Source of the DNA: Ochromonas danica
Lineage: Eukaryota; Sar; Chrysophyceae; Chromulinales; Chromulinaceae
Direction of reading: 5' to 3'
Assembly (NCBI GenBank): GCA_015146655.1
Contig: VKHL01000020.1
Coordinates: forward strand, 1 to 64,000
DNA length: 64,000 nucleotides
Shown one piece after another: positions 25,185 through 56,552 of the stretch. The notes under the pieces were generated by a model. The model did not search any database. It worked only from the letters and a program-made list of their open reading frames with translations, and was not told where the DNA came from. The position numbers and the translations under genes are program-made. Within the stretch, counting starts at the first letter, position 1, and each line of letters opens with the position of its first letter.

Positions 25185-26894
25185 TGAGTATTATTATTGA
25201 TTTTCATAATATATACAGTATTCCTAGACATACAGTAAGATGGAGAAGAGAATGTTCACTCGAATGATATCTAACTAGATGATATATACTTGGATATTAT
25301 AACTAATTGGAGTGTAATAGAGGATGGGACGTCAGGTAGCGACTTCCATCAATAGTTGGAAGACAGTTGCTTTCTATATGGTTTCTTGTCTTTCGTTGCC
25401 ACCCTGGTGAATCGTGAGTGAAGACTATGGTATGGGGCCTTGTTATAGTTGTTACTGTTCGACCGTGGCAATCAAATCATCTGCGCTATGCGCTTCTTCT
25501 TCTTCTATTCCTCAATAATTGTAATACAAAGATTATTAGTTCTTCTTCTCGTTAGTGTGGTAGCAGTCTATTTGTTTGGAGTTTTCTTTATTGCGTGGTG
25601 GCATGCACTGATTGATTGATTGTTGTGGCTGGGCTATTCTCTTCTCTGTTTGTGTGTGTTGCCAACTGTTTACTATTGAGTGTTGTAGTTGTTGTCTACC
25701 AGCACCAAGCTGCTTGCTTTGCTTGCCTTTCTGCTCTTTAGAACACTCACTCACTCATACTTGAAGATCGAGGTCAATTATTTTTGCCACCGCCATTCCT
25801 GAGCCATCATATGAACATTTAAATAGCAGTTGGTTGTTTTGTGTTTCAATCTCAATGATGATGATGATGGTGATGATAATAAATAATAATGCGAAAGTCT
25901 CGTTCTCTCGCTCTTTGTGTTAGTTTGATGGTTTGTGGTGTGTGTGTATATATATAAAGATTGGATTTGGATTGTTAATGGATACTACTTCTGTTTATGT
26001 CTCTCCTGGCCATTTTCTTCCTGTAATATCTGTGTCTTCTGTTGATGGATGATGATCGGCTGTTCAATGACCAGAAGAGGCTCTTTTTCTGCCTGCGGTT
26101 CAGTTCGGAATGTTTTTTTAATTTTAATGGCTAGTCTAGCTGTGGCAGTTCCATTTGTTATTGTTGTTATTGTTGTAGTAATGCTCTTGTTCGCGTCTTC
26201 CACAGACTTGCCCGCTCTCCTCTATCTCTATCCTCATGATAATGATATTGCTCTGCTCTTCTTGTTCTTCTCTGCTGTTTCTTATTCCTTGAGTGTTCTT
26301 TCTCTTCTCTCTGTCTATGTAGTGACGCTTTTGTCACTCACCATCGTACCGTTCCCATGTCCGTGTCCGTGCCTGCTCCATGGACTACTACAACCACTAC
26401 CTCTACTATCACTCAACTTCTTCTTCGAGAGAGATCCGCCCTACCCTGTGCTAGTGCTCGGTCCACTTTTTGATCTAAACTCTCTGCGGTTTTTATTAAC
26501 CCTATGCTCGACATGTTCAGTTCTCCCTCCTTTACCATACATACCATTCCTTTCCATTCCCATTAACAACAAGTCAAGTCAGTGCATTGCATTATCCAAG
26601 TCTCTTGTGGTGATCAACCAACCCATCATGCTGTTTTCTTTGTGTGATAACTCTTGTGTCTTAACGGGTCAAGTTCAAGACAGTTGATAATGTTAAGATG
26701 TTACTTTTTTATTCTCTTTCCTCTATTCTTTGTCGGTCCATAGACGCATGTTATAGTATATCGATATCACTAGTAGTACAAGTGTATCGTTTGGTGTGTG
26801 GTGAGAGGCCAGACCTAGATCTAGGAATCTGGCGGGGGACTAGCAACTGTACTGTATCATGAGGAGTAACAATGAAGACTAAGGAAGAAAGAGA
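25185..26894. other. long intergenic region with a weak gene candidate at 26049-26687 (+)
   Basis: A TATATATAAAG box at 25948-25958 lies about 90 bp before an ATG at 26049 that opens 212 codons. The predicted product has several hydrophobic stretches (VPFVIVVIVVVMLLFA, LLFLFFSAVSYSLSVLSLL) and no known domain. The plus strand is pyrimidine-rich here, which favours chance hydrophobic frames, and the minus strand has two short Gln/Lys-rich frames of equal merit. A GAT-type trinucleotide stretch lies at 25856-25885. I treat a gene as possible but unproved. Confidence 0.25.
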
Positions 26895-28088
26895 ATGATT
26901 AGAAGCGAGGTTGCCGAGGTAGAAGCCCAGGTGATCCTTCACGACTACCTGGCAAAGATCCTTCCCACAAGGCAGCAGCAGCAACAACAGCAAAGAGAAT
27001 GCCTCTCTCTGCAGCCCTTCGGCATGGGCCAAGTTAACGCCACCTGGGCTGTCTGCCTCAACGACGTGGCATACTTTGTCCTACAACAAGTCAACACCAC
27101 CGTACTCTTAGATCCTGCTAAGACCCATCACAACTATCTGCGACTCCAAGCCTATGCTCAAGGTAGACTGTCTTCCTCACCAGTTAGGCAGCCTGGTCAC
27201 GATAGCCATCAACTAGGAGGAGAGAAGAAGCCATTTCCCTTTCTAGTGGTCTTGCCACAAAGTGAAGAAGGCTTTCTCAGGACCTCATCGGGCTGTCTCT
27301 TCCGCCTCTTCGAGTATCTTCCCACTAGCCAAACCATACGCTCTCCTTCCTCCCTAGACACCATATACGAGATGGCGAGACAGTTCGCCTGCTTTACAGC
27401 CTTCTTTCATGATTTCCCTGTGTCAGAATTAGAGATCACTATCCCTGCTCTTCATGACCTCACCGCGAAGTACGCCACTTTCGAGGAAAGTCTTCTCTTT
27501 GGGAGGGAAGATCGCAAAGCCAACGCCGAGGCACAGCGACTGATCGCCTTGGCTATAGCTCATGGAAGTGAGATTTGTCCTCTCTATTCTCAACTTTGCC
27601 ACGAGCCAGATATGAAGCAACGGGTGGTACATCATGATGCCAAGCTATCCAACATGCTGTTTGATAACCAAGGAAGAGGTCTCGCCGTGATTGACTTGGA
27701 CACTGTCATGCCAGGTTGGATCCTGTGTGACCTCGGAGAACTTCTTCGCGCAACTCTATGTGGATACACTTCTTGTGAAGATGCCGCAGATCTAGCTTCT
27801 CTTCACTTGGAGATGGACTGCTTCCAGGCAGTGGTCCGCGGCTACCTCGAGCCATTGGAAGACTTGCTGACAGCCCAAGAGAAGGTTCACCTTCTATTCG
27901 CGGGTGATTACATCATCTTCATGCAAGCGATCCGATACCTCACTGACTACTTGGTCGGCGATGTCTACTACATCGTGGTGCAATCCGAGCAGAACCTTAT
28001 ACGAGCTAGAAACTTGTTCTGGCTACTGCGTGCCTATCAAGAGAAGCGAGAGCTAATGCAGCAGATCGTCAATGATATCTTGCAGTGA
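26895..28088 (+). CDS. APH-family sugar kinase, N-acetylhexosamine 1-kinase (NahK)-like
   Basis: A single exon of 397 codons. The C-terminal lobe carries the phosphotransferase loop VVHHDAKLSNMLFD (catalytic Asp followed by Asn five residues on) and the metal-binding IDLDTVMPGWILCDLGELLR. This pairing is typical of NahK-type kinases, which phosphorylate C1 of N-acetylhexosamines. The N-lobe has GMGQVNATWAVC followed by YFVLQQVN, the nucleotide-binding hairpin. A seven-Gln run near residue 30 is a low-complexity insert. No targeting peptide is evident, so it is probably cytosolic. Family is firm, substrate is inferred from the IDLDTVMPG wording; homoserine-kinase-type or choline-kinase-type activity would be alternatives. 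Confidence 0.85.
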   Translation: MIRSEVAEVEAQVILHDYLAKILPTRQQQQQQQRECLSLQPFGMGQVNATWAVCLNDVAYFVLQQVNTTVLLDPAKTHHNYLRLQAYAQGRLSSSPVRQPGHDSHQLGGEKKPFPFLVVLPQSEEGFLRTSSGCLFRLFEYLPTSQTIRSPSSLDTIYEMARQFACFTAFFHDFPVSELEITIPALHDLTAKYATFEESLLFGREDRKANAEAQRLIALAIAHGSEICPLYSQLCHEPDMKQRVVHHDAKLSNMLFDNQGRGLAVIDLDTVMPGWILCDLGELLRATLCGYTSCEDAADLASLHLEMDCFQAVVRGYLEPLEDLLTAQEKVHLLFAGDYIIFMQAIRYLTDYLVGDVYYIVVQSEQNLIRARNLFWLLRAYQEKRELMQQIVNDILQ

Positions 28089-29486: not shown

Positions 29487-30100
29487 ATGATGCAGAACAC
29501 ACAAGAAGAAAAGAGAAACACTGAACAAGTGAGAAGAATAAAGGAAGAGAGAGGAAGTGGCATTGAGGTAAAGCAAGAAGTCTATGCTATCCCTTGCAAG
29601 AAGGAAGAATCAAGACAGCAGCCGCTGCTACAACAACTACTACAACAGGAGGTACAGCAGCAGGAGTCAAGCAAGCAGGTCGCGGCTGCTGAGATTGTTG
29701 CTAACGTGAATAATAAACTCAAAAGAGAACAACCAGAAAGAAAGAGAGCACGAGTTGAAAAGAAAGAGAGCAGAGGAGGGAAAGGCTCTGAATGACAAGT
29801 TATTCGCTCAGCTAAAAGAGGGTCAGATCGCTGTTCTACTTCAGGATTGCTCTACTAATTGGCAGCTACGGGTTGATTTAGAAGATGTGACTGTTTTGAA
29901 AACACTGGAGACTTACAATGCAATTCAAAGAATCCCTTTGTCAGTAATCAACCGTCGCTTCAAAATGACTGTAGATGGTGAAGAAATCAAGGTAAAGTAG
30001 TCTACTGATTCTAGCCTGTTGGTTGATATAATGGTGTCATGAGGGAGAACAGTGTACTCTAGCTAGCTTAGCCTGTTAGTTAGGATGATACTTGCTGTCG

Positions 30101-30144
<44 letters not shown>

Positions 30145-33100
30145 ATGATGTTGGCGGGAGGGATGTCTGTGTACAGCTCAACTATGTTGCTGTGCATTCT
30201 AATAGGGATGGTGTGTATGTGTGTATGCTGTGGTGAATGTCTAATAATGGTCTGTAGGGTATGACAGCGCTGAATGTGTCAGCTGTGAAGGGTAATGTTG
30301 AGATGGCGAAGTTGTTGTTACTTCATCCAGCGATAGATGTCAATGCTGTGGACAGTAAGGTGAGCATACAAGCATTTCTAACAACTATTAATGATGATGT
30401 CTGTCTGGGCAGTCTGGTTGTAATTGCATGTATATTAGCAATCATCTGCCATTCCTATAGCATTTATGTCTATAGATTGTATAAATATTAATCTTTTTAT
30501 ATTGATTATTCCTATGAATTACTGATGCTAATAGATGTGATTGTGTTTGACTAGTATAAATGTTCGCCCTTGTATCATGCATGCAGATATGGTCATGTTG
30601 AATTGGTTAAGATCTTAATGCTTGATATGCGGGTGGAGATAAGCAAGGCTAACAAGGCAAGTACTCTTCTACCTAACATGGTAATAGTCTTGTAATAGCA
30701 TGTTATAAGTTAGTGTTAGTGTGGGTAGAAAGCAGGTGAATATGTTAATGTATAGTATATATTACTATGAATATATATTTAATAGTCAGTCTGTTATGAT
30801 GGTGTATATTTGATAGGTTAGTGTAGGTGTTAGTATAAAGTAGATGAAGGTGTTAGTATTAGCATATGTTAGTATGAGCAGATATACTACAATGATTACA
30901 ATGTCAATATTATTATTGTTATAGCTAATATATATGTGACTGTGATTGCCTAGGATGCATGGACGCCCTTTCATATTGCATGCTGTTATGGTAATGTTGA
31001 AGTGGTGAAGCTCTTGTTGCTGGATCCAAGAGTTGATGTGGACAAGGCTGATAAGGTAGGTGTGACTAGATATCTAATAGTTAGTCTGCTATGATGGTTT
31101 ATATGTTATAGGTTAGTGTGGGTGTTAGTATAAAGTAGACGAAGGTATTGTTGTTGGCATAAGTTAGTATGAGCAGATATAGAGTGACTACAATGTGCTT
31201 ATTGTGATAGCTAATGTATATGTGACTGTGGTTGACTAGCCTGGACGGACGCCTTTGCATGTGGCTTGTGGTTATGGTCGTATTGAAGTGGTGAAACTCT
31301 TATTGCTGGATCCAAGAGTGGATGTGAACAAGAGTAGAAAGGTTAGTGTGGCTGTCCTTTCTTCCACCTTATATGATGGTAGTATTGTACTGTATAGTAT
31401 AGTATGTCACCTTAATGATATGTAGTATGGTATAAGTTAGTGTTAGTGTTGGTAGTAAGCAGATGAGTACATTAATGTACAGTATATGTTAATATGAGTA
31501 GATGTGCAGTATAATAGTTAGTCTGATTATATGTTATAGGTTAGTGTAGGTGTTGGTATAAAGTAGGTGAAGGTGTTAGTATTAGTATATGTTAGTATGA
31601 TCAAATATCGAATGATTACAATGTGCTTATTCTTATAGCTAATATATATGTGACTGTTGTTGACTAGAATGGATGTACGCCCTTGCGTATTGCATGCAAC
31701 AATAGTCGTATTGAAGTGGTGAAGCTCTTGCTGCTAGATCCAAGAGTTGATGTAGAGAAGAGTAATAGGGTAAGTGTGGCTATCCTTTCTTCTATCTTAT
31801 ATGGTAGTAGTCTTATACTATATAGTTTAGTACTGGTATGTCGCAATAATGATATGTAGTATGTTATAAGTTAGTGTTAGGGTAGGTAGCGTGGTATAAG
31901 TTAGTGTTAGCAGATGAATGTGTTTATTTGCAGTATATGTTAATATGAGTAGATATCTAATGGTTAGTCTGTCATGATGGTTTCTATGTTATATATGAGT
32001 GTAAGTGTTAGTATTATTAACATATGTTAGTATGAGCAGATATACTACAATGATTACAATGTTGTTATTGTGATATATGTGACTGTGCTTCACTAGGATG
32101 GATGGACTCCCTTGCGTACTGCATGCTTCACAGGTAATGTTGAAATGGTGAAGCTCTTGTTGCTAGATCCAAGAGTTGATGTGAACAAGAGTAAAAGGGT
32201 AAGTGTGGCTATCCTTTGCTCTATCTTATATGGTAGTAGCCTTGTACTGTATAGTATGTCACAATAATGATATGTAGCATGTTATAAGTTAATGTTAGTG
32301 TAGGTAGAAAGCAGATGAATATGTTAATGTACAATATATGTTAATATGAGTATATATATAATGGTGTATATGTTAGTGATGGTGTATATGTTATAGGTTA
32401 GTGTAGGTGTTAGTATTGGTATATGTTAGTATGAGCAGATATAGTAAATTACAATGTGCTTATTATTATTGTTACAGCTAATATATATGTGACTGTGGTT
32501 GACTAGGATCTATGGGCGGATGGATGGACGGCCTTGCATACCGCATGCTGGCATGGTCGTATTGAAATTGTGAAGCTCTTGTTGCTTGATCCAAGAGTTG
32601 ATGTAAACCAACCTAGTAATGTAAGCGTGGCTATCCTTTCTTTCTTTCATCTGACATGGTAGTATTGTACTGTATAGTATAGTATGTCACAATAATGATA
32701 TGTAGTATGGTATAAGTTAGTGGTAGTGTTGGTAGCAAGCAGATGAGTACATTAATGTACAGTATATGTTAATATGAGTAGATGTGCAGTATAATAGTTA
32801 GTCTGATTATATGTTATAGGTTAGTGTAGGTGTTGGTATAAAGTAGGTGAAGGTGTTAGTATTAGTATATGTTAGTATGATCAAATATCGAATGATTACA
32901 ATGTGCTTATTCTTATAGCTAATATATATGTGACTGTTGTTGACTAGAATGGACGGACGCCATTTTATGAAGCGTGCTGCAAAGGTAATGTTGAAATGGT
33001 GAAGCTCTTGTTGGCAGATCCAAGAGTTAATATGAACAAGTTTGATAAGGTAGGTGTGGTTATCCTTTCTTCCACCTGACGGTGTAGTAGGTAGTCTTGT

Positions 33101-33865
33101 ACTGTAAGCAATGATATGTGGTGTGAGCAGATATAGAATGCTTACAATATCATTATTCTTGTAGTTAATCTATGTGACTGTGTTTGACTAGTATGGAGTG
33201 ACGCCCTTGCATATTGCATCAAGCGATGGTAATCTTGAAGTGGTTAAGGTGTTAGTGTTTGATCATCGAGTGGATCTAAACAAGGCTGATAAGGTAAGTA
33301 TGAACATGTGCAGTGTAGTGTTAACTTATATGGCTGTTGTCTAGTATACCGTATAGTATAGTATTGCTATATTTGAGTCTTGTATATGATAGCAGAGTAT
33401 TGATGTGTTTGTAATATCTCAACTGTGTTTGTTTCTATCATATATTGTTTGTCACAAGATGTATGAAATGGATGATGTGTTATGGTGGTGTGTATGAGAG
33501 GTTAGCAATAGGGTGTACTGTAGAGTATTATTAGAGTGAGTGACATGATGTGTGGTTATTATTGGAGTACAGTGATCAGATGGTACTACTGCTATATGTT
33601 AGTTGTAGTATATGTTAGTAGGTTATATAGTAGTAGTAAGATGGTAGTGGCAGTGGTAATTATCTTGACAGAGTGTGTTGTTGTCATTGACTCTAATCTT
33701 GTCATCTTCTCTGTCTTATGTATCTTGTGGTTGTCGTTGGGTTAGATGGGACAGACTGCTCTGTTTGCTGCTAAGACAGAAGAAGTTAAAGCACTTCTGG
33801 TGGCCAAGGGAGCAAAATTGGGAAGAAGAGGTTTGATTGCTGCTAGCATTGTTAAGACATGGTGA
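29487..33865 (+). CDS. ankyrin-repeat protein encoded by an array of nine in-phase repeat exons
   Basis: After a basic, Gln-rich N-terminal part, ankyrin repeats are encoded one per exon: 30258-30359, 30555-30656, 30954-31055, 31240-31341, 31668-31769, 32097-32198, 32507-32620, 32948-33049 and 33192-33293, then a terminal exon 33746-33865. Eight are exactly 102 bp and one is 114 bp; all begin and end in phase 0. Each reads like TPLHIACxxGxVEVVKLLLL followed by DPRVDVNK. Repeats share the second half closely and vary at residues 1-3, 7-8 and 11-13. The N-terminal coding part is uncertain: the frame from the ATG at 29487 must shift to the frame open from 29710 to 29991, most simply by a small intron ending at 29736 (donor at 29568 or 29652). 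Ankyrin repeats bind proteins; the partner is unknown. The intron after the second repeat exon has a GC donor. Confidence 0.82.
30098..30144 (+). repeat. (GTT)n microsatellite in an intron
   Basis: About fifteen uninterrupted GTT units lie in the intron 29992-30257 that precedes the first ankyrin exon. It is likely to vary in length between strains. Confidence 0.9.
30555..33293 (+). repeat. tandem exon-intron cassette array of the ankyrin gene
   Basis: Units of one 102- or 114-bp exon plus one intron of about 140-330 bp are repeated in the same orientation. The introns share long stretches such as TTAGTGTAGGTGTTAGTATA and an end reading GTGACTGT followed by TTGACTAG. The introns before the exons at 31668 and 32948 are identical over 211 bases up to the splice site (31457-31667 and 32737-32947). 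The array clearly grew by duplication of whole cassettes. Confidence 0.9.
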
Positions 33866-34637: not shown

Positions 34638-36641
<2,004 letters not shown>

Positions 36642-36790: not shown

Positions 36791-36975
36791 CGAGCTGAAA
36801 AGGCAAAAAGTGTGTTTTACCAACAGAAACAGTTTCTCTTCTTGTGCCTCTATCACTATACATGTATTTACGTACAGCGACTGTACTTTATAAAAGCAAC
36901 TAAGGAAGTTATGAAAATCATCAAATTTTCTCTGCTTGATACTCTTCAACACGCAAGTCGTAAAATCAGGCGGTA

Positions 36976-37260
36976 GTTTGCTAAGTCCATGGTAGATCTC
37001 TGTACGATGTTAGGACGTCCGTGGACTTCGCTAATGACTCCAACATTATGCTTATGCAGCCAACACGGTTAGATAGCCAGCTCAATTCTCAGACTACCAA
37101 CCCATTATCTGAATGAGGGACCTTGTGGATCAAAAGTTATTGAAGAAATACTCCAAGCATTTTCAACAAATGTTGGCTGCATAAGCATCATGTTGGAGTC
37201 ATTAGCGAAGTCCACGGACGTCCTAACGTCGTCCAGAGATCTACCATGAACTTAGGAAAC
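36976..37260. repeat. 285-bp foldback sequence with ~90-bp inverted arms (MITE- or hairpin-like)
   Basis: The left arm 36976-37065 and right arm 37171-37260 are reverse complements with about 7-8 mismatches in 90 bases. They are separated by a loop of about 105 bp. Arms contain GTTAGGACGTCCGTGGACTT and GCTAATGACTCCAACAT in mirrored order. No coding frame lies inside and no clear target-site duplication flanks it. It is most simply a foldback non-autonomous DNA element; a transcribed long hairpin giving small RNA is an alternative. Confidence 0.8.
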
Positions 37261-37880
37261 TTCTTGGGAGATATGGATCTCCTTGGACACTTCTTAGAGA
37301 CTCGCTCACTCTCCTTGTATGGCAATTCAGTGATGTAGTAGTCAGCTTCATCCAAACCTCCGTTATGGGTCTTTGTTGCAGTCTTGGCCCGCCGACCTAA
37401 CTAACTATCATTCACTATGGTACTGAAGGAGTCCTTTCCCCCATTCTGTTTTCCAAAAGACTCATTTGTCTTTGAGATATCACCTGTCCAAAACAGAATA
37501 TGCAGAAGCAAGATTCTTGTTATTTCTAACTGATTATCATCATTCAAGTTCATTTTCCTTACCTATAGGATGGCTTTAATGTGGGTTACCTTGGGATATA
37601 TCAGAAACTGCTTTCAGATGGTCTCTGGCTTTCGAGAGCTTCTGTTCTACTACTACTACTACTGTAGTATGCTCTGTCCATTTGATTTTCTCTATATTTC
37701 TGTCAAATTTTCATTTATTATAATCAATTCAAACATTTCAAAGGTATTACCATGTGTATTCTTACATGGAAAAGGCAATGGAACTAATAGATCATTCAAT
37801 ATCGATGCCTTTGATAAGGTGATCATCGTTGTTTTCTTCCTTAACCATGGTTATTACCTTGCGCGGCAGTGGTGTGGTGT

Positions 37881-50771: not shown

Positions 50772-50844
50772 GCCTCGATAGCTCAGTTGGGAGAGCGTAA
50801 GACTGAAGATCTTAAGGTCACTGGTTCGATCCCGGTTCGAGGCA
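50772..50844 (+). tRNA. tRNA-Phe (GAA), copy 1
   Basis: A 73-base cloverleaf: acceptor GCCTCGA pairs with TCGAGGC, D arm GCTC/GAGC, anticodon stem TAAGA/TCTTA with loop CTGAAGA (anticodon GAA), T arm ACTGG/CCGGT with loop TTCGATC, discriminator A. Box A (TAGCTCAGTTGG) and box B (GGTTCGATCCC) are intact. There is no intron and no encoded CCA, as in nuclear eukaryotic tRNAs. A TTTT terminator follows at 50849-50852 or so. Confidence 0.97.
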
Positions 50845-51612: not shown

Positions 51613-53400
51613 CTATTGACTCGAGAAGGCGGTTGCTAAAGGATCAGATGACATGGCTACAGGACAGACATGGCTGTGACATTCTTCCAGATCACCTCCT
51701 AGCCTCACCACTCCACTCACATTTGTGCTGTGTCCTGTGCTATCCAAAGGAAATGACAGCTGGCGCACTTCCTCTTTGAGGGAAGACACGGGGCCTGTTC
51801 GACACAAACTGTCAGCATCGCCCACGTCTCCTCGAGTCGCCACACCTGATCGAAGCGAAGACTCAGCAGAGTGATCCTCCATCCTGTTGCCCCCTGACCG
51901 ACTCGATGTGAGGTAGATAACAGCATAGTTTGGACCGCGCAATAAGGAAACAACCACCCCGCGCAGACCTCTCTTCCCACTCCGTCGATTCCTTCGCGTT
52001 CGTCGACTAAGATTGGCTATATACACTTTGAAGAACCGTGCTTGCTCTTCAGTAGAGAAGCATTGCTTCTTCTGAGCCACAAGGAAGTAGTAGATGATGG
52101 TGAGCACTGTAGAGACCACGAAGAAGGTGGTGGAGACGGTAACTTCCTTGGGGAAGGCAATAAGAGTGACAGCTGTGAAGCCATAGAGGGAGATTGCATA
52201 ACAAGCTCCTACTTTGCCCAAGGGACTGCGAAACTGCCTCTCCATATTACTGAATTTGACCGCATAGATGCAATAGGCAACCATTAGAGAGACATAGACG
52301 GGCAAAGAGCTCATCATGGAGATGGTGAAGAGGATGGAGAGATAGGTCTCATGCCGCGTGTAGAAGAGAATGACCTCCACGCTATAGCTCATCAAAGAGA
52401 CTACGAGCAGAGCTGCCAGAGGGCTTTGATTGGGGCCATAAGTGCGCTTCAACCAGGAAGGAGCCAGACCCGAGCTGGCCATGGCATAGAGCTGCTTGCT
52501 CGAGGCGAACAGAAAGCAATAGGTCGATCCGAGGATGCCAGGGGCGAAGAGCAAAGCAACGTAGCGTTCCTCCACGTGGAAGAGACGTGTCAGGCCCGGA
52601 CTGAGAGGGAACTTGGCAGAGACGAGGTGGGCGGGACCAGGCTGAATGCTGCCCATGATGACCACAATGCTGAGCACCAACACGATCATAGACCCGATAG
52701 ACAGCATCATAGCCTTCGGGACTCTCACTGAAGGGTTCTCGGTATCTTCACAGGTCAAGGTCATGACCTCGATCCCCTTGAAGCACCACCCAGCCACCGC
52801 AAAGTAGCGCAAGAAGACCCTGGGCTCGGGATCGAAATGCGCCTCAGCCGCCATACTCGCCACTCCTACATTGCCAAAGCAGTAGATGAGAATAACGAGA
52901 AGGATCCAGAGAGACATCAAGCCTCCCACTTTCCAGAAGACGCTGCCTCCTATTATCTGGAATGGGATGGCAAAGGCGTAGAAGAAGAACCAATAGACAG
53001 GCTCCAGCCACTCGTCCGTCTGACATGCCAATGTCATGATCCTGCCAAAGGCGACCAAGGAAGCGGAGACAAACATGGTGTACTCCATGGACTCGAAGAA
53101 GCCCACCATGTAGCCCATGAAAGGTCCCAGCACACACCTCACATAGCCATAGGACCCTCCAGAGAAGGGCAAGATCGACGTCATCTCCGCCACACACGAA
53201 GTGAAGCAGATGTAGCCCAAGGCCACCATGCACACACAAAAGAAGAATTCCCAGTAGCCCATGATAAATCCGCTCTGCCAGAAAGTCAGTCCCTTGCCCA
53301 ACACCAGCACTCCAAACAAGTATAATTCCGCAAAGCTGGTTTTATAATGGCGTGCAGAGAGTTTCTGACAAGCACAAGGTGTGTGGTCAGGATTGACCAT
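51613..53400 (-). CDS. APC-superfamily permease, ethanolamine/amino-acid type, copy 1
   Basis: 595 residues, single exon, ATG at 53400. About twelve membrane helices run from residue 25 to 460. Motifs GYWEFFFCVCMVALGYICFT, then EMTSILPFSGGSYGYVRCVL GPFMGY, and CFKGIEVMTLTCEDTENPSV follow the EAT (ethanolamine permease-like) branch of the APC superfamily, with the FSGGSYG segment typical of substrate binding. The hydrophilic tail of about 130 residues has a basic RRTRRNRRSGKRG patch. The C-terminus ends SSDPLATAFSSQ, whereas copy 2 reads the same DNA in another frame after a small length change. Substrate is inferred from family only. Confidence 0.9.
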   Translation of the reverse strand: MVNPDHTPCACQKLSARHYKTSFAELYLFGVLVLGKGLTFWQSGFIMGYWEFFFCVCMVALGYICFTSCVAEMTSILPFSGGSYGYVRCVLGPFMGYMVGFFESMEYTMFVSASLVAFGRIMTLACQTDEWLEPVYWFFFYAFAIPFQIIGGSVFWKVGGLMSLWILLVILIYCFGNVGVASMAAEAHFDPEPRVFLRYFAVAGWCFKGIEVMTLTCEDTENPSVRVPKAMMLSIGSMIVLVLSIVVIMGSIQPGPAHLVSAKFPLSPGLTRLFHVEERYVALLFAPGILGSTYCFLFASSKQLYAMASSGLAPSWLKRTYGPNQSPLAALLVVSLMSYSVEVILFYTRHETYLSILFTISMMSSLPVYVSLMVAYCIYAVKFSNMERQFRSPLGKVGACYAISLYGFTAVTLIAFPKEVTVSTTFFVVSTVLTIIYYFLVAQKKQCFSTEEQARFFKVYIANLSRRTRRNRRSGKRGLRGVVVSLLRGPNYAVIYLTSSRSGGNRMEDHSAESSLRSGVATRGDVGDADSLCRTGPVSSLKEEVRQLSFPLDSTGHSTNVSGVVRLGGDLEECHSHVCPVAMSSDPLATAFSSQ

Positions 53401-54411
53401 GGTTCGTTGCTTTGGAGGATTATTTTAAACAAAAATCGCATCAATTCTTTGATGTACTTGGGAATTATTCACCTTCACAGTGATAAGATACAGCGAACTA
53501 GTTGGTAATTATTCATCAGACTGTGATATGAACTACAGTTGTTTTGTTTGTTTGCAGATGCCAATCAATGACAAACAACAAGACAAAGTCTGGAAGAAGT
53601 GAATCAATCAACGCCAGAACAGAACAAGCAGCAGCAGAAACAACACCCGAAAACGAAAATGGCGACTTTCACACACAAGCGAAAACGCCGTGCTTTCGCT
53701 GTGATCTTAACATGACATCCTAACATGACATGTATGAAAACGAAAAAAATCTCCTCCCACATTTAACTAAATGTTACAAAAAAATATCAAAAAATAGAAG
53801 AGCTCAAGGGCTACAAGAATGCTCATACAAGTTCTCACTCAAATCCAAACAGTAACGATGAAATTAGAACAGGCGACCGAGCAAGACAGAAAAAGAAATT
53901 TGGGGTTTTAGGAAATGTCATGTTAGGATGTCATGTTAAGATCACTGTTTGTATAGTGTTGTTTTGGTTTCTGATATGAATGGTTGAATGGTTGGTGATA
54001 TACTTTTATTGTTGCTCTCAGAAAGTCTCAACAATGCCACCAGACAAGCTTTGGATCAAGAGTGTTACTCTGCAGAATGCTAACGATACTACTAAACGAA
54101 ACAGAGAACGATATAAACTAGATACTGATACAATAACAACCTCGATAGCTAATAATAGCGTGCTACCGCAGCAAACAAGATCTGAATGAAGAAGATGAGA
54201 AAATAATACTTGTTTCCAGAGGATAGAGAGAGATCTTCGACCGAACAGACACAAATATTGAAGCAAGCAATAGCAGAACAACAGATACACGACCACTACC
54301 ACTATAACAACAATCACAACAGAAAGCAAAGCTGTTGCTGCTTACTATAGACCCACATACAGCTCACATAAACAATGATAATAACAATCGGCACAGGACG
54401 ACATCGTTAAA
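53401..54411. other. spacer between the permease copies
   Basis: 53401-53580 is the 5' flank of copy 1, matching 56280-56440. 53581-53996 is unique and holds the inverted-repeat element at 53701-53945. 53997-54411 is the 3' flank of copy 2. No gene other than the duplicated parts is seen. Confidence 0.6.
53701..53945. mobile_element. 245-bp MITE-like element with perfect 31-bp terminal inverted repeats
   Basis: Bases 53701-53731 are the exact reverse complement of 53915-53945. Each terminus begins GTGATCTTAACATGACATCC and contains two direct copies of TAACATGACAT. The interior (183 bp) is AT-rich with no coding frame. No obvious target-site duplication flanks it, and the transposon superfamily cannot be named. 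It is most likely a non-autonomous DNA transposon. It sits about 300 bp upstream of the start codon of permease copy 1 and has no counterpart upstream of copy 2. Confidence 0.8.
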
Positions 54412-56241
54412 CTAACTGTACTTCTTTTCTATTGACTCGAGAAGGCAGCTGCTCGAGGATGATGACATGGCTACAGGACAGACATGGCTGTGACATTCTT
54501 CCAGATCACCTCCTAGCCTCACCACTCCACTAACATTTGTGCTGTGTCCCGTGCTATCCAAAGGAAATGAAAACTGACGCATTTCCTCTTTTAGGGAAGG
54601 AACAGGGCCTGTTCGACACAAATTGTTGTCTTCGTAGAAGGAAGAGCATTCCTCAGCATCGCCCACGTCCCCTCGAGTCGCCGCACCTGATCGAAGCGAA
54701 GAATCAGCAGAGTGATCCACCATCCTGTTGCCCCCTGACCGACTCGATGTGAGGTAGATAACAGCATAGTTTGGACCGCGCAATAAGGAAACAACCACCC
54801 CGCGCAGACCTCTCTTCCCACTCCGTCGATTCCTTCGCGTTCGTCGACTAAGATTGGCTATATACACTTTGAAGAACCGTGCTTGCTCTTCAGTAGAGAA
54901 GCATTGCTTCTTCTGAGCCACAAGGAAGTAGTAGATGATGGTGAGCACTGTAGAGACCACGAAGAAGGTGGTGGAGACGGTAACTTCCTTGGGGAAGGCA
55001 ATAAGAGTGACAGCTGTGAAGCCATAGAGGGAGATTGCATAACAAGCTCCTACTTTGCCCAAGGGACTGCGAAACTGCCTCTCCATATTACTGAATTTGA
55101 CCGCATAGATGCAATAGGCAACCATTAGAGAGACATAGACGGGCAAAGAGCTCATCATGGAGATGGTGAAGAGGATGGAGAGATAGGTCTCATGCCGCGT
55201 GTAGAAGAGAATGACCTCCACGCTATAGCTCATCAAAGAGACTACGAGCAGAGCTGCCAGAGGGCTTTGATTGGGGCCATAAGTGCGCTTCAACCAGGAA
55301 GGAGCCAGACCCGAGCTGGCCATGGCATAGAGCTGCTTGCTCGAGGCGAACAGAAAGCAATAGGTCGATCCGAGGATGCCAGGGGCGAAGAGCAAAGCAA
55401 CGTAGCGTTCCTCCACGTGGAAGAGACGTGTCAGGCCCGGACTGAGAGGGAACTTGGCAGAGACGAGGTGGGCGGGACCAGGCTGAATGCTGCCCATGAT
55501 GACCACAATGCTGAGCACCAACACGATCATAGACCCGATAGACAGCATCATAGCCTTCGGGACTCTCACTGAAGGGTTCTCGGTATCTTCACAGGTCAAG
55601 GTCATGACCTCGATCCCCTTGAAGCACCACCCAGCCACCGCAAAGTAGCGCAAGAAGACCCTGGGCTCGGGATCGAAATGCGCCTCAGCCGCCATACTCG
55701 CCACTCCTACATTGCCAAAGCAGTAGATGAGAATAACGAGAAGGATCCAGAGAGACATCAAGCCTCCCACTTTCCAGAAGACGCTGCCTCCTATTATCTG
55801 GAATGGGATGGCAAAGGCGTAGAAGAAGAACCAATAGACAGGCTCCAGCCACTCGTCCGTCTGACATGCCAATGTCATGATCCTGCCAAAGGCGACCAAG
55901 GAAGCGGAGACAAACATGGTGTACTCCATGGACTCGAAGAAGCCCACCATGTAGCCCATGAAAGGTCCCAGCACACACCTCACATAGCCATAGGACCCTC
56001 CAGAGAAGGGCAAGATCGACGTCATCTCCGCCACACACGAAGTGAAGCAGATGTAGCCCAAGGCCACCATGCACACACAAAAGAAGAATTCCCAGTAGCC
56101 CATGATAAATCCGCTCTGCCAGAAAGTCAGTCCCTTGCCCAACACCAGCAATCCAAACAAGTATAATTCCACAAAGCTGATTTTATAATGGCGTGCAGAG
56201 AGTTTCTGACAAGCACAAGGTGTGTGGTCCATGGTCTCCAT
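54412..56241 (-). CDS. APC-superfamily permease, ethanolamine/amino-acid type, copy 2
   Basis: 609 residues, single exon, ATG at 56241. Residues about 40-480 are identical to copy 1 as far as I can read, including all membrane helices and the FSGGSYG segment. Differences are few but clustered: the N-terminus (METMDHTP against MVNPDHTP; ISFVELYLFGLL against TSFAELYLFGVL), an insert ECSSFYEDN in the tail, and a C-terminus SSSSSCLLESIEKKYS in a different frame. The transport function should therefore be the same, with any divergence in trafficking or regulation. A tRNA-Phe gene lies about 240 bp upstream on the same strand. Confidence 0.9.
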   Translation of the reverse strand: METMDHTPCACQKLSARHYKISFVELYLFGLLVLGKGLTFWQSGFIMGYWEFFFCVCMVALGYICFTSCVAEMTSILPFSGGSYGYVRCVLGPFMGYMVGFFESMEYTMFVSASLVAFGRIMTLACQTDEWLEPVYWFFFYAFAIPFQIIGGSVFWKVGGLMSLWILLVILIYCFGNVGVASMAAEAHFDPEPRVFLRYFAVAGWCFKGIEVMTLTCEDTENPSVRVPKAMMLSIGSMIVLVLSIVVIMGSIQPGPAHLVSAKFPLSPGLTRLFHVEERYVALLFAPGILGSTYCFLFASSKQLYAMASSGLAPSWLKRTYGPNQSPLAALLVVSLMSYSVEVILFYTRHETYLSILFTISMMSSLPVYVSLMVAYCIYAVKFSNMERQFRSPLGKVGACYAISLYGFTAVTLIAFPKEVTVSTTFFVVSTVLTIIYYFLVAQKKQCFSTEEQARFFKVYIANLSRRTRRNRRSGKRGLRGVVVSLLRGPNYAVIYLTSSRSGGNRMVDHSADSSLRSGAATRGDVGDAEECSSFYEDNNLCRTGPVPSLKEEMRQFSFPLDSTGHSTNVSGVVRLGGDLEECHSHVCPVAMSSSSSSCLLESIEKKYS

Positions 56242-56479
56242 GGTTCTAATCTGCAGCTGTGTGTCCTTCTTACTTCGTTGTTTTGGAGGATAAATAAAAT
56301 CGCATCAATTCTTTGATGTACTTAGGAATAATTCACCTTCACAGTGATAAGATACAAAGGACTAGTTGGTAATATTCATCAGACTACAATTGACTTCAGA
56401 TTTGTTTGTGTTTGCAGCAATTGCCAATGACGAACAAAACTCACCGGAACTGCTGCAGTCAAGACAAAAGCAAAACGAT

Positions 56480-56552
56480 TGCCTCGAACCGGGATCGAAC
56501 CAGTGACCTTAAGATCTTCAGTCTTACGCTCTCCCAACTGAGCTATCGAGGC
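56480..56552 (-). tRNA. tRNA-Phe (GAA), copy 2
   Basis: Identical in all 73 bases to the gene at 50772-50844 but on the opposite strand. The identity extends a few bases on each side: CATGAG before it and AATCGTTTTGC after it, which includes the TTTT terminator. It lies about 110 bp from the divergent TRM6 start codon. Confidence 0.97.

What the first reader, a model, noticed from the sequence alone, without database searches (positions are those of the whole stretch)
31342..33049. Ankyrin exon cassettes: introns identical, exons divergent
The introns before the exons at 31668 and 32948 are identical over 211 bases that end at the splice site (31457-31667 and 32737-32947), and the match runs six bases into the exons. 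The remaining 96 exon bases then differ at 30 positions by my count, and only about three of these changes are silent. The flanking upstream exons (31240-31341 and 32507-32620) also differ widely. Normally introns decay faster than exons. Either the introns are being homogenised by recombination while the exons resist it, or the exons change very fast under diversifying selection or a directed mechanism. This is the most unusual signal in the window.
Basis: seen in the sequence. Interest (0 to 1): 0.85.

Follow-up and report, generated by a model that had tools for sequence, protein, structure and literature searches.

The report
Ankyrin exon arrays with shared introns
This algal gene belongs to a large family whose repeat-coding exons differ from each other, most of all at the likely binding surface, while the introns between them stay alike, probably because they are copied between gene copies; the striking intron pair looks like one recent copy event.

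Summary
In detail: 31457-31673 equals 32737-32953 exactly (217 bp, six bases into the exons), then 30 of 96 exon bases differ.

The pair is no evidence of fast exon change. Its exon distance (0.29) is ordinary: 473 same-contig pairs average 0.297. Unusual is the intron, a recently copied tract of about 300 bp ending near a splice site. None of 37 other exact tracts ends within 12 bp of an acceptor; 2.9 are expected.

The wider pattern is real. I catalogued 208 34-codon ankyrin exons on 21 contigs. Most of their introns (145 of 190 match the window's) form one family, found so far only before ankyrin exons. Among 70 introns of 290-350 bp, diversity is 0.208; fourfold sites of the adjoining exons differ at 0.450. 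Intron and exon distances are nearly independent. Surface codons show pN/pS 1.45-2.45 depending on the set, others 0.32-0.39.

Best reading: introns homogenised by ectopic exchange, exons kept diverse by selection; a variant of known repeat-exon families. Intron constraint is not excluded.

The parts
31457..31667 (+). 3' 211 bp of the intron before exon 31668; identical to 32737-32947 (identity runs on to 31673)
32737..32947 (+). 3' 211 bp of the intron before exon 32948; identical copy (identity runs on to 32953)
31376..31456 (+). left part of the copied tract, 4 mismatches to 32656-32736
30258..30359 (+). first ankyrin exon, 34 codons, register one residue off the others (ankyrin by eye, not run against Pfam)
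   Evidence: translation; sequence
30555..30656 (+). ankyrin exon, 34 codons, followed by a GC donor (not run against Pfam)
30954..31055 (+). ankyrin exon, 34 codons
31240..31341 (+). ankyrin exon, 34 codons
31668..31769 (+). ankyrin exon of the pair, 34 codons
32097..32198 (+). ankyrin exon, 34 codons
32507..32620 (+). ankyrin exon of 38 codons, four extra codons at the start
32948..33049 (+). second ankyrin exon of the pair, 34 codons
33192..33293 (+). ankyrin exon, 34 codons
33746..33865 (+). terminal exon with stop, capping-repeat-like by eye; not matched to a family by any search
   Evidence: translation
29487..29991 (+). presumed N-terminal exon region; two overlapping frames, structure unresolved
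   Evidence: translation; sequence

Best explanation
The locus is one of a large family of ankyrin-repeat genes in which a repeat is typically one 102-bp phase-0 exon (8 of 9 in this gene), and most of the roughly 320-bp introns between exons belong to one intron sequence family. Introns are kept alike within and between arrays by ectopic exchange (gene conversion and unequal crossing-over; shown as exact shared tracts of 60 to 577 bp). Exons keep old diversity because codons at the ankyrin binding surface are under diversifying selection and because diverged exons are poor substrates for further exchange (both inferred). The pair at 31457/32737 is one recent intron tract of about 300 bp copied between cassettes 1280 bp apart; that it ends near the splice site is a coincidence, seen in this one tract and in none of 37 others. 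A role as an intracellular recognition receptor with a changing surface is inferred from the surface pattern only.
For: Exact tracts: 37 after a rough redundancy filter, 60-577 bp, among 154 dereplicated units, 20 of 37 between different contigs (at least four of the 37 are one unit pair matched at several internal repeats). Introns against exons: 0.208 versus 0.450 at fourfold sites (70 of 154 units chosen on intron length only, 20,720 fourfold comparisons); of 4,000 random pairs, 2,051 have both introns >=250 bp, 87% of them align over >=100 bp, at p 0.143 there, while third codon positions differ at about 0.41 in random pairs with alignable introns; a simulation shows that the alignment does not lower the estimate. 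Decoupling: Mantel r -0.02 (P 0.60) and 0.03 (P 0.30); third-codon distance flat at 0.39-0.41 for intron p 0.05-0.25 and lower (0.185, n=7) only below 0.05. Some clustering of introns by contig: nearest neighbour on the same contig in 34 of 86, shuffle mean 10.6, maximum 23. Recent tandem copies with 0 differences in exon and the intron stretches compared on C194 and C262. Surface selection: 20 close pairs, pN/pS 2.45 (1.02-10.65) at published surface positions, 0.37 (0.25-0.52) elsewhere. Exons maintained: 2 of 223 ankyrin-like stretches with an in-frame stop.
Against: Mean intron distance is the same within and between contigs (0.194, 473 pairs; 0.195, 3,622 pairs), which a mainly local process would not give. 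Exon under-representation in tracts is weak when all 37 are used (P 0.11) and clear only in the 33 under 300 bp (P 0.008). Independence is not perfect: the intron's nearest neighbour has mean exon rank 0.41 where 0.5 is independent, the first six exon bases correlate weakly with the intron (r 0.13, P 0.05), and one intron bin correlates with the exon (r 0.44, P 0.015). Two of three surface sets have confidence limits that include 1. Low linkage disequilibrium in introns would also fit recurrent mutation round a constrained consensus. Without read or population data the direction and rate of exchange cannot be shown.
Confidence: 0.65

Rival explanations
1. Intron constraint: the intron sequence is itself functional (splicing of short phase-0 exons, alternative splicing, regulatory or non-coding RNA) and purifying selection keeps all copies near one consensus; exchange is incidental.
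For: Conservation spreads over the whole intron (20-column means 0.12-0.31, and 0.06 in the last 3 columns); the intron end was found only in ankyrin arrays (91 genome matches to the 27-nt pattern, none of the reversed control, all on contigs with matches; in fetched arrays 79 of 89 precede a catalogued exon and the other 10 an ankyrin-like frame by eye); equal within- and between-contig means.
Against: Exact tracts of 100-300 bp between contigs need recent copying; no excess RNA structure in 5 intron pieces, two of them the same sequence (z 0.03 to 1.76); introns cluster by contig more than shuffles.
Confidence: 0.2
2. Exon-directed hypermutation: a mechanism changes exons and spares introns.
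For: Fourfold sites in exons are twice as diverged as introns; variable codons are near random at positions such as 11.
Against: In 24 of 27 pairs (6 of 9 groups by my grouping) with no mismatch in the last 100 bp of intron the exons are identical; non-surface codons have pN/pS 0.37; the differences of the 7014/8296 pair on L014 begin where the shared tract ends; only 2 of 223 ankyrin-like stretches carry a stop.
Confidence: 0.04
3. Assembly artefact: the two introns were made identical by collapse or polishing.
For: The assembly has runs of N in two of the fetched array stretches (L021 and L033).
Against: No N in the window; similar tracts occur across many contigs; an artefact would not give a whole family with introns less diverged than fourfold sites.
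Confidence: 0.06

Closest known systems
Tetrahymena 90-bp-exon LRR gene arrays (PMC6564038; abstract, found passages and section 17 read)
   Same: One repeat per exon, tandem arrays, constant intron phase, ectopic recombination between arrays and chromosomes.
   Different: Ankyrin instead of LRR, phase 0 instead of phase 2, alga instead of ciliate; in the parts I read there is no statement that introns are less diverged than synonymous exon sites.
Brown algal LRR-ROCO genes with shuffled LRR exons (PMC11378527, abstract and passages read; the original report, Zambounis et al. 2012, known to me only from that paper and recall)
   Same: Algal repeat-protein genes, one repeat per exon, exon shuffling, diversifying selection, proposed immune receptors.
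   Different: 72-bp phase-2 LRR exons tied to ROC-COR; none of the 10 neighbouring ORFs scanned here matched ROC or COR.
RPP8 NLR family of Arabidopsis (PMC6771003, passages read)
   Same: Intergenic gene conversion plus diversifying selection; [quoted passage not shown]
   Different: A few whole-gene paralogues rather than hundreds of exon cassettes.
MHC/HLA introns homogenised next to diverse exons, and venom phospholipase A2 genes with introns more conserved than exons (both recalled; of the 10 papers listed I opened only the RPP8 one, and the single paper was not opened)
   Same: Intron-exon contrast in the same direction.
   Different: Animal genes; not tandem exon cassettes.

Membership tests
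Ankyrin repeat (Pfam PF00023) | Single exon translations exceed the curated cut-off | tested here: met
   7 of 7 window exons tested (of 9) pass the PF00023 cut-off of 21.1 bits
Repeat-per-exon array shaped by ectopic recombination (Tetrahymena LRR kind) | Exon = one repeat, constant length and phase, in tandem | tested here: met
   208 exons of 102 bp with splice-like borders in 29 stretches of 21 contigs; 0 on reversed sequence, one strand
Repeat-per-exon array shaped by ectopic recombination (Tetrahymena LRR kind) | Sequence exchange between arrays | tested here: met
   37 exact tracts >=60 bp, 20 between contigs
Diversified receptor family | pN/pS above 1 at binding-surface codons and below 1 elsewhere | tested here: inconclusive
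   20 close pairs: published set 2.45 (1.02-10.65) versus 0.37; recalled set 1.45 (0.68-4.35) versus 0.39; set chosen after seeing the data 1.50 (0.83-3.54) versus 0.32. Surface exceeds the rest in all three; above 1 is secure in one
Diversified receptor family | Population polymorphism, expression or recognition function | not testable with these tools
   one assembly, no reads or relatives
Introner elements | Same intron family in many unrelated genes | tested here: not met
   91 genome matches to the intron end all lie on contigs with matches; of the 89 in fetched arrays 79 precede a catalogued ankyrin exon and 10 an ankyrin-like frame by eye. A diverged copy elsewhere could be missed by the 27-nt pattern; the 211-bp intron search scored only 40 of 155 candidates
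Diversity-generating retroelement or other directed mutator | Recent copies with identical surroundings but changed variable codons | tested here: not met
   24 of 27 pairs with no mismatch in the last 100 bp of intron have identical exons; the window pair is one of the three exceptions and is explained by a tract end
Dscam-like mutually exclusive exons | Pairing selector/docking RNA elements | tested here: inconclusive
   5 intron pieces fold no better than shuffles; long-range pairing and transcripts not examined

The most novel reading that the evidence does not exclude
The intron family is a maintained homology handle: its conserved sequence, so far found only with ankyrin exons, promotes exchange between hundreds of cassettes so that whole exons are reshuffled on intact introns, giving the alga a standing, fast-recombining repertoire of intracellular ankyrin receptors.
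Probability: 0.12. Interest if true: 0.8.

Novelty: new variant of a known kind. Interest (0 to 1): 0.5.

Why it matters
It is a clear case in which non-coding sequence between coding repeats shows about half the divergence of silent exon sites across a gene family, which sets concerted evolution against surface-diversifying selection inside single cassettes. If confirmed with strains, it would give algae a receptor-like family comparable to plant NLRs or brown algal LRR-ROCO genes, with a simple layout in which exchange tracts can be read directly.

Tried and rejected
Introner reading: rejected as far as tested, the intron end was found only in ankyrin arrays. Directed mutation: rejected for lack of exon-only change in recent copies. 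A rule that tracts stop at the splice site: rejected, 0 of 37 right ends within 12 bp of the acceptor, 2.86 expected. Low intron divergence as an alignment effect: rejected by simulation. Bias from choosing introns like the reference (91 of 190): checked with length-only and random sets. An apparent asymmetry between the 5' and 3' intron parts was much weaker when full introns of 290-350 bp were aligned. The exon share expected from territory (25.7%) overstates the depletion; random placement within units gives 15%. My first surface set was chosen after seeing the variation and so is circular; one search used a recalled set, another the six positions of PMC3308923. The per-bin comparisons rest on a gappy 526-column alignment; one of them (columns 406-466 against exon, r 0.44, P 0.015) goes against independence and I did not follow it. 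Species: not identified. A silicon transporter match is partial (46.1 bits, positions 2-156 of 513, over the cut-off). A light-harvesting protein has its lowest E-values with chains named LHCI over short stretches, and matches XLH12 (residues 23-221) and FCPI-3 (37-215) over most of its length (I take the latter two as ochrophyte names from recall). An exon resembles 15-cis-phytoene desaturase, below that model's cut-off for a whole protein. A red-plastid alga is likely; the eight Parmales assemblies of a table in PMC10328945 (passages read) do not fit. Neighbouring long ORFs: 10 of 30 listed were scanned (several of the 30 are runs of N); weak matches of 20-30 bits and one clear domain, CNNM, on the array strand in L026; whether it belongs to the same gene was not tested.

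Rows dropped: one search found 208 exons; 193 after dereplication; 190 with full flanks. Units need two catalogued exons 60-700 bp apart: 163, 154 after dereplication; the 32948 cassette is not among them because the 114-bp exon before it is not in the 102-bp catalogue. Searches used the 184 exons of the first 20 stretches and the window; one search tallied only pairs with up to 12 gap positions. In one search two stretches of C194 were labelled as different contigs. Of 24 contigs with matches listed I used 21 (not C112, C80, C130, nor C124:85 kb and C135:77 kb); that list was itself cut.

Full report
Observation. The window lies on contig C20 of a 31.2-Mb, 337-contig genome. To the left the match continues with 4 mismatches to 31376 and then breaks up.

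The gene. Nine ankyrin exons lie between 30258 and 33293, eight of them 102 bp (34 codons, read in phase 0) and one 114 bp, followed by a short terminal exon with a stop at 33863-33865. Seven of the nine were tested singly and all seven exceed the Pfam PF00023 cut-off. The N-terminal region is unresolved: two overlapping frames at 29487-29991.

The family. A search with the locus gave 171 matches on many contigs. In 28 fetched stretches plus the window, on 21 contigs, I catalogued 208 exons of exactly 102 bp with splice-like borders; the same scan on reversed sequence (one strand) gave none. A looser scan added 13 without exact borders and 2 with an in-frame stop. Of 190 exons with full flanks, 145 have an upstream intron that matches the window intron, 91 over most of its length. 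A 27-base pattern of the intron end has 91 matches in the whole genome with up to 3 mismatches and none for the reversed control, all on contigs that also match. Of the 89 in fetched arrays, 79 stand directly before a catalogued exon and the other 10 before an ankyrin-like frame by eye, two of these with a stop as first codon, which may be a second acceptor, and two with a stop inside. The intron family is thus tied to these exons as far as tested; a search with the 211-bp intron also hit only such contigs but scored 40 of 155 candidates.

Introns differ less than silent exon sites. In the 91 cassettes chosen for a family intron, mean pairwise diversity is 0.197 over 220 intron columns and 0.416 at third codon positions. 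In 70 of 154 units chosen on intron length alone it is 0.208 over 323 columns, against 0.450 at fourfold sites. Of 4,000 random pairs 2,051 have both introns at least 250 bp long, and 87% of these align over 100 bp or more, at p 0.143. Simulated alignments do not underestimate divergence.

Introns and exons are nearly decoupled. Distances are uncorrelated (Mantel r -0.02 and 0.03), and third-codon distance stays near 0.40 for intron distances from 0.05 to 0.25. Weak ties remain: mean exon rank of the intron's nearest neighbour 0.41 (0.5 is independent), r 0.13 (P 0.05) for the first six exon bases, and r 0.44 (P 0.015) for one intron bin. Linkage disequilibrium in introns falls from 0.13 at 1-3 bp to 0.02-0.04 beyond 10 bp; between intron and exon it is 0.015-0.031 against 0.012-0.023 in shuffles. 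Introns still cluster by contig (34 of 86 nearest neighbours; shuffles 10.6), though less than exons (51 of 86); mean distances within and between contigs are equal (0.194 and 0.195), which speaks against purely local exchange.

Exchange is directly visible. After a rough redundancy filter there are 37 exact tracts of 60-577 bp between units, 20 of them between contigs (at least four of the 37 come from one unit pair with internal repeats). Seven touch an exon. Exon bases are 593 of 5,213 (random placement 789, P 0.11); in the 33 tracts under 300 bp, 185 of 3,479 (random 523, P 0.008). No right end lies within 12 bp of an acceptor where 2.9 are expected, so the boundary seen at 31673 is one case and no rule.

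The pair reconsidered. Exon distance within contigs averages 0.297 and the pair has 30 of 102. Thus the exons are ordinary and the intron was copied. Of 27 pairs with no mismatch in the last 100 bp of the upstream intron, 24 have identical exons. They are not independent: by my grouping 9 groups, 6 with identical exons. This is against a mutator that targets exons.

Selection. Variable residues coincide with the positions randomised in a published ankyrin library (2, 3, 5, 10, 13, 14 of PMC3308923, passage read; the mapping to exon codons 34, 1, 3, 8, 11, 12 is mine): mean entropy 3.23 against 1.67 for all positions, none of 20,000 random sets as high. In 20 close pairs, each exon used once, pN/pS there is 2.45 (1.02-10.65) and 0.37 (0.25-0.52) elsewhere, resting on 5.4 synonymous changes. 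A recalled set gave 1.45 (0.68-4.35) against 0.39, and a set chosen after seeing the data 1.50 (0.83-3.54) against 0.32. In six central window exons the published set gives 1.29 against 0.69, the recalled set 2.23 against 0.63, and all codons 0.87. Surface codons thus change more freely than the rest in every set; that they exceed 1 is likely, not secure.

Mechanism. Shown: one main intron family, copied tracts, near-decoupling, conserved frames, surface-biased variation. Inferred: that exchange is the main cause of intron likeness, that exon heterology and selection shield exons, and that the proteins are recognition receptors. Purifying selection on introns is the main rival; 5 intron pieces (four distinct) showed no unusual folding.

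Comparison. The layout and exchange match Tetrahymena LRR arrays (PMC6564038) and brown algal LRR-ROCO genes (PMC11378527); the contrast of diversity between exon and intron with gene conversion resembles RPP8 (PMC6771003). Nine paper searches listed no paper whose title or abstract start names this ankyrin family; only open-licence papers are held and the species is unknown, so this is weak evidence of novelty.

Noticed in passing
window 36975-37065 and 37171-37261: Inverted repeat, 91-nt arms, 95% complementary, 105 nt apart.
   Followed up: no
window 50772-50844 (+) and 56480-56552 (-): Two tRNA genes with equal scores in opposite orientation on either side of two ORFs with similar amino-acid permease matches (51613-53424 and 54412-56304, both -), perhaps a local duplication.
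   Followed up: no
window 26883-28088 (+): Single open frame with an APH-type phosphotransferase domain.
   Followed up: no
window 34650-36620 (-): Intron-containing gene (limits read by eye) whose exon 35123-35768 best matches 15-cis-phytoene desaturase.
   Followed up: partly
L015 (C262), L017 (C194), L021/L022 (C251): Recent tandem amplifications: cassettes 692 bp and 458 bp apart with identical exons, and a repeat 3,932 bp apart carrying five identical cassettes.
   Followed up: partly
G000:C224:8673-16382: Four light-harvesting genes with equal scores 2,407 bp apart.
   Followed up: no
arrays, coding strand: Introns are very C-poor: 7% C in 91 family introns, GC skew 0.55; skew 0.42 in all array introns and 0.30 in exons. 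No explanation tested.
   Followed up: no
window 32507-32518: Four extra codons at the start of one ankyrin exon.
   Followed up: no
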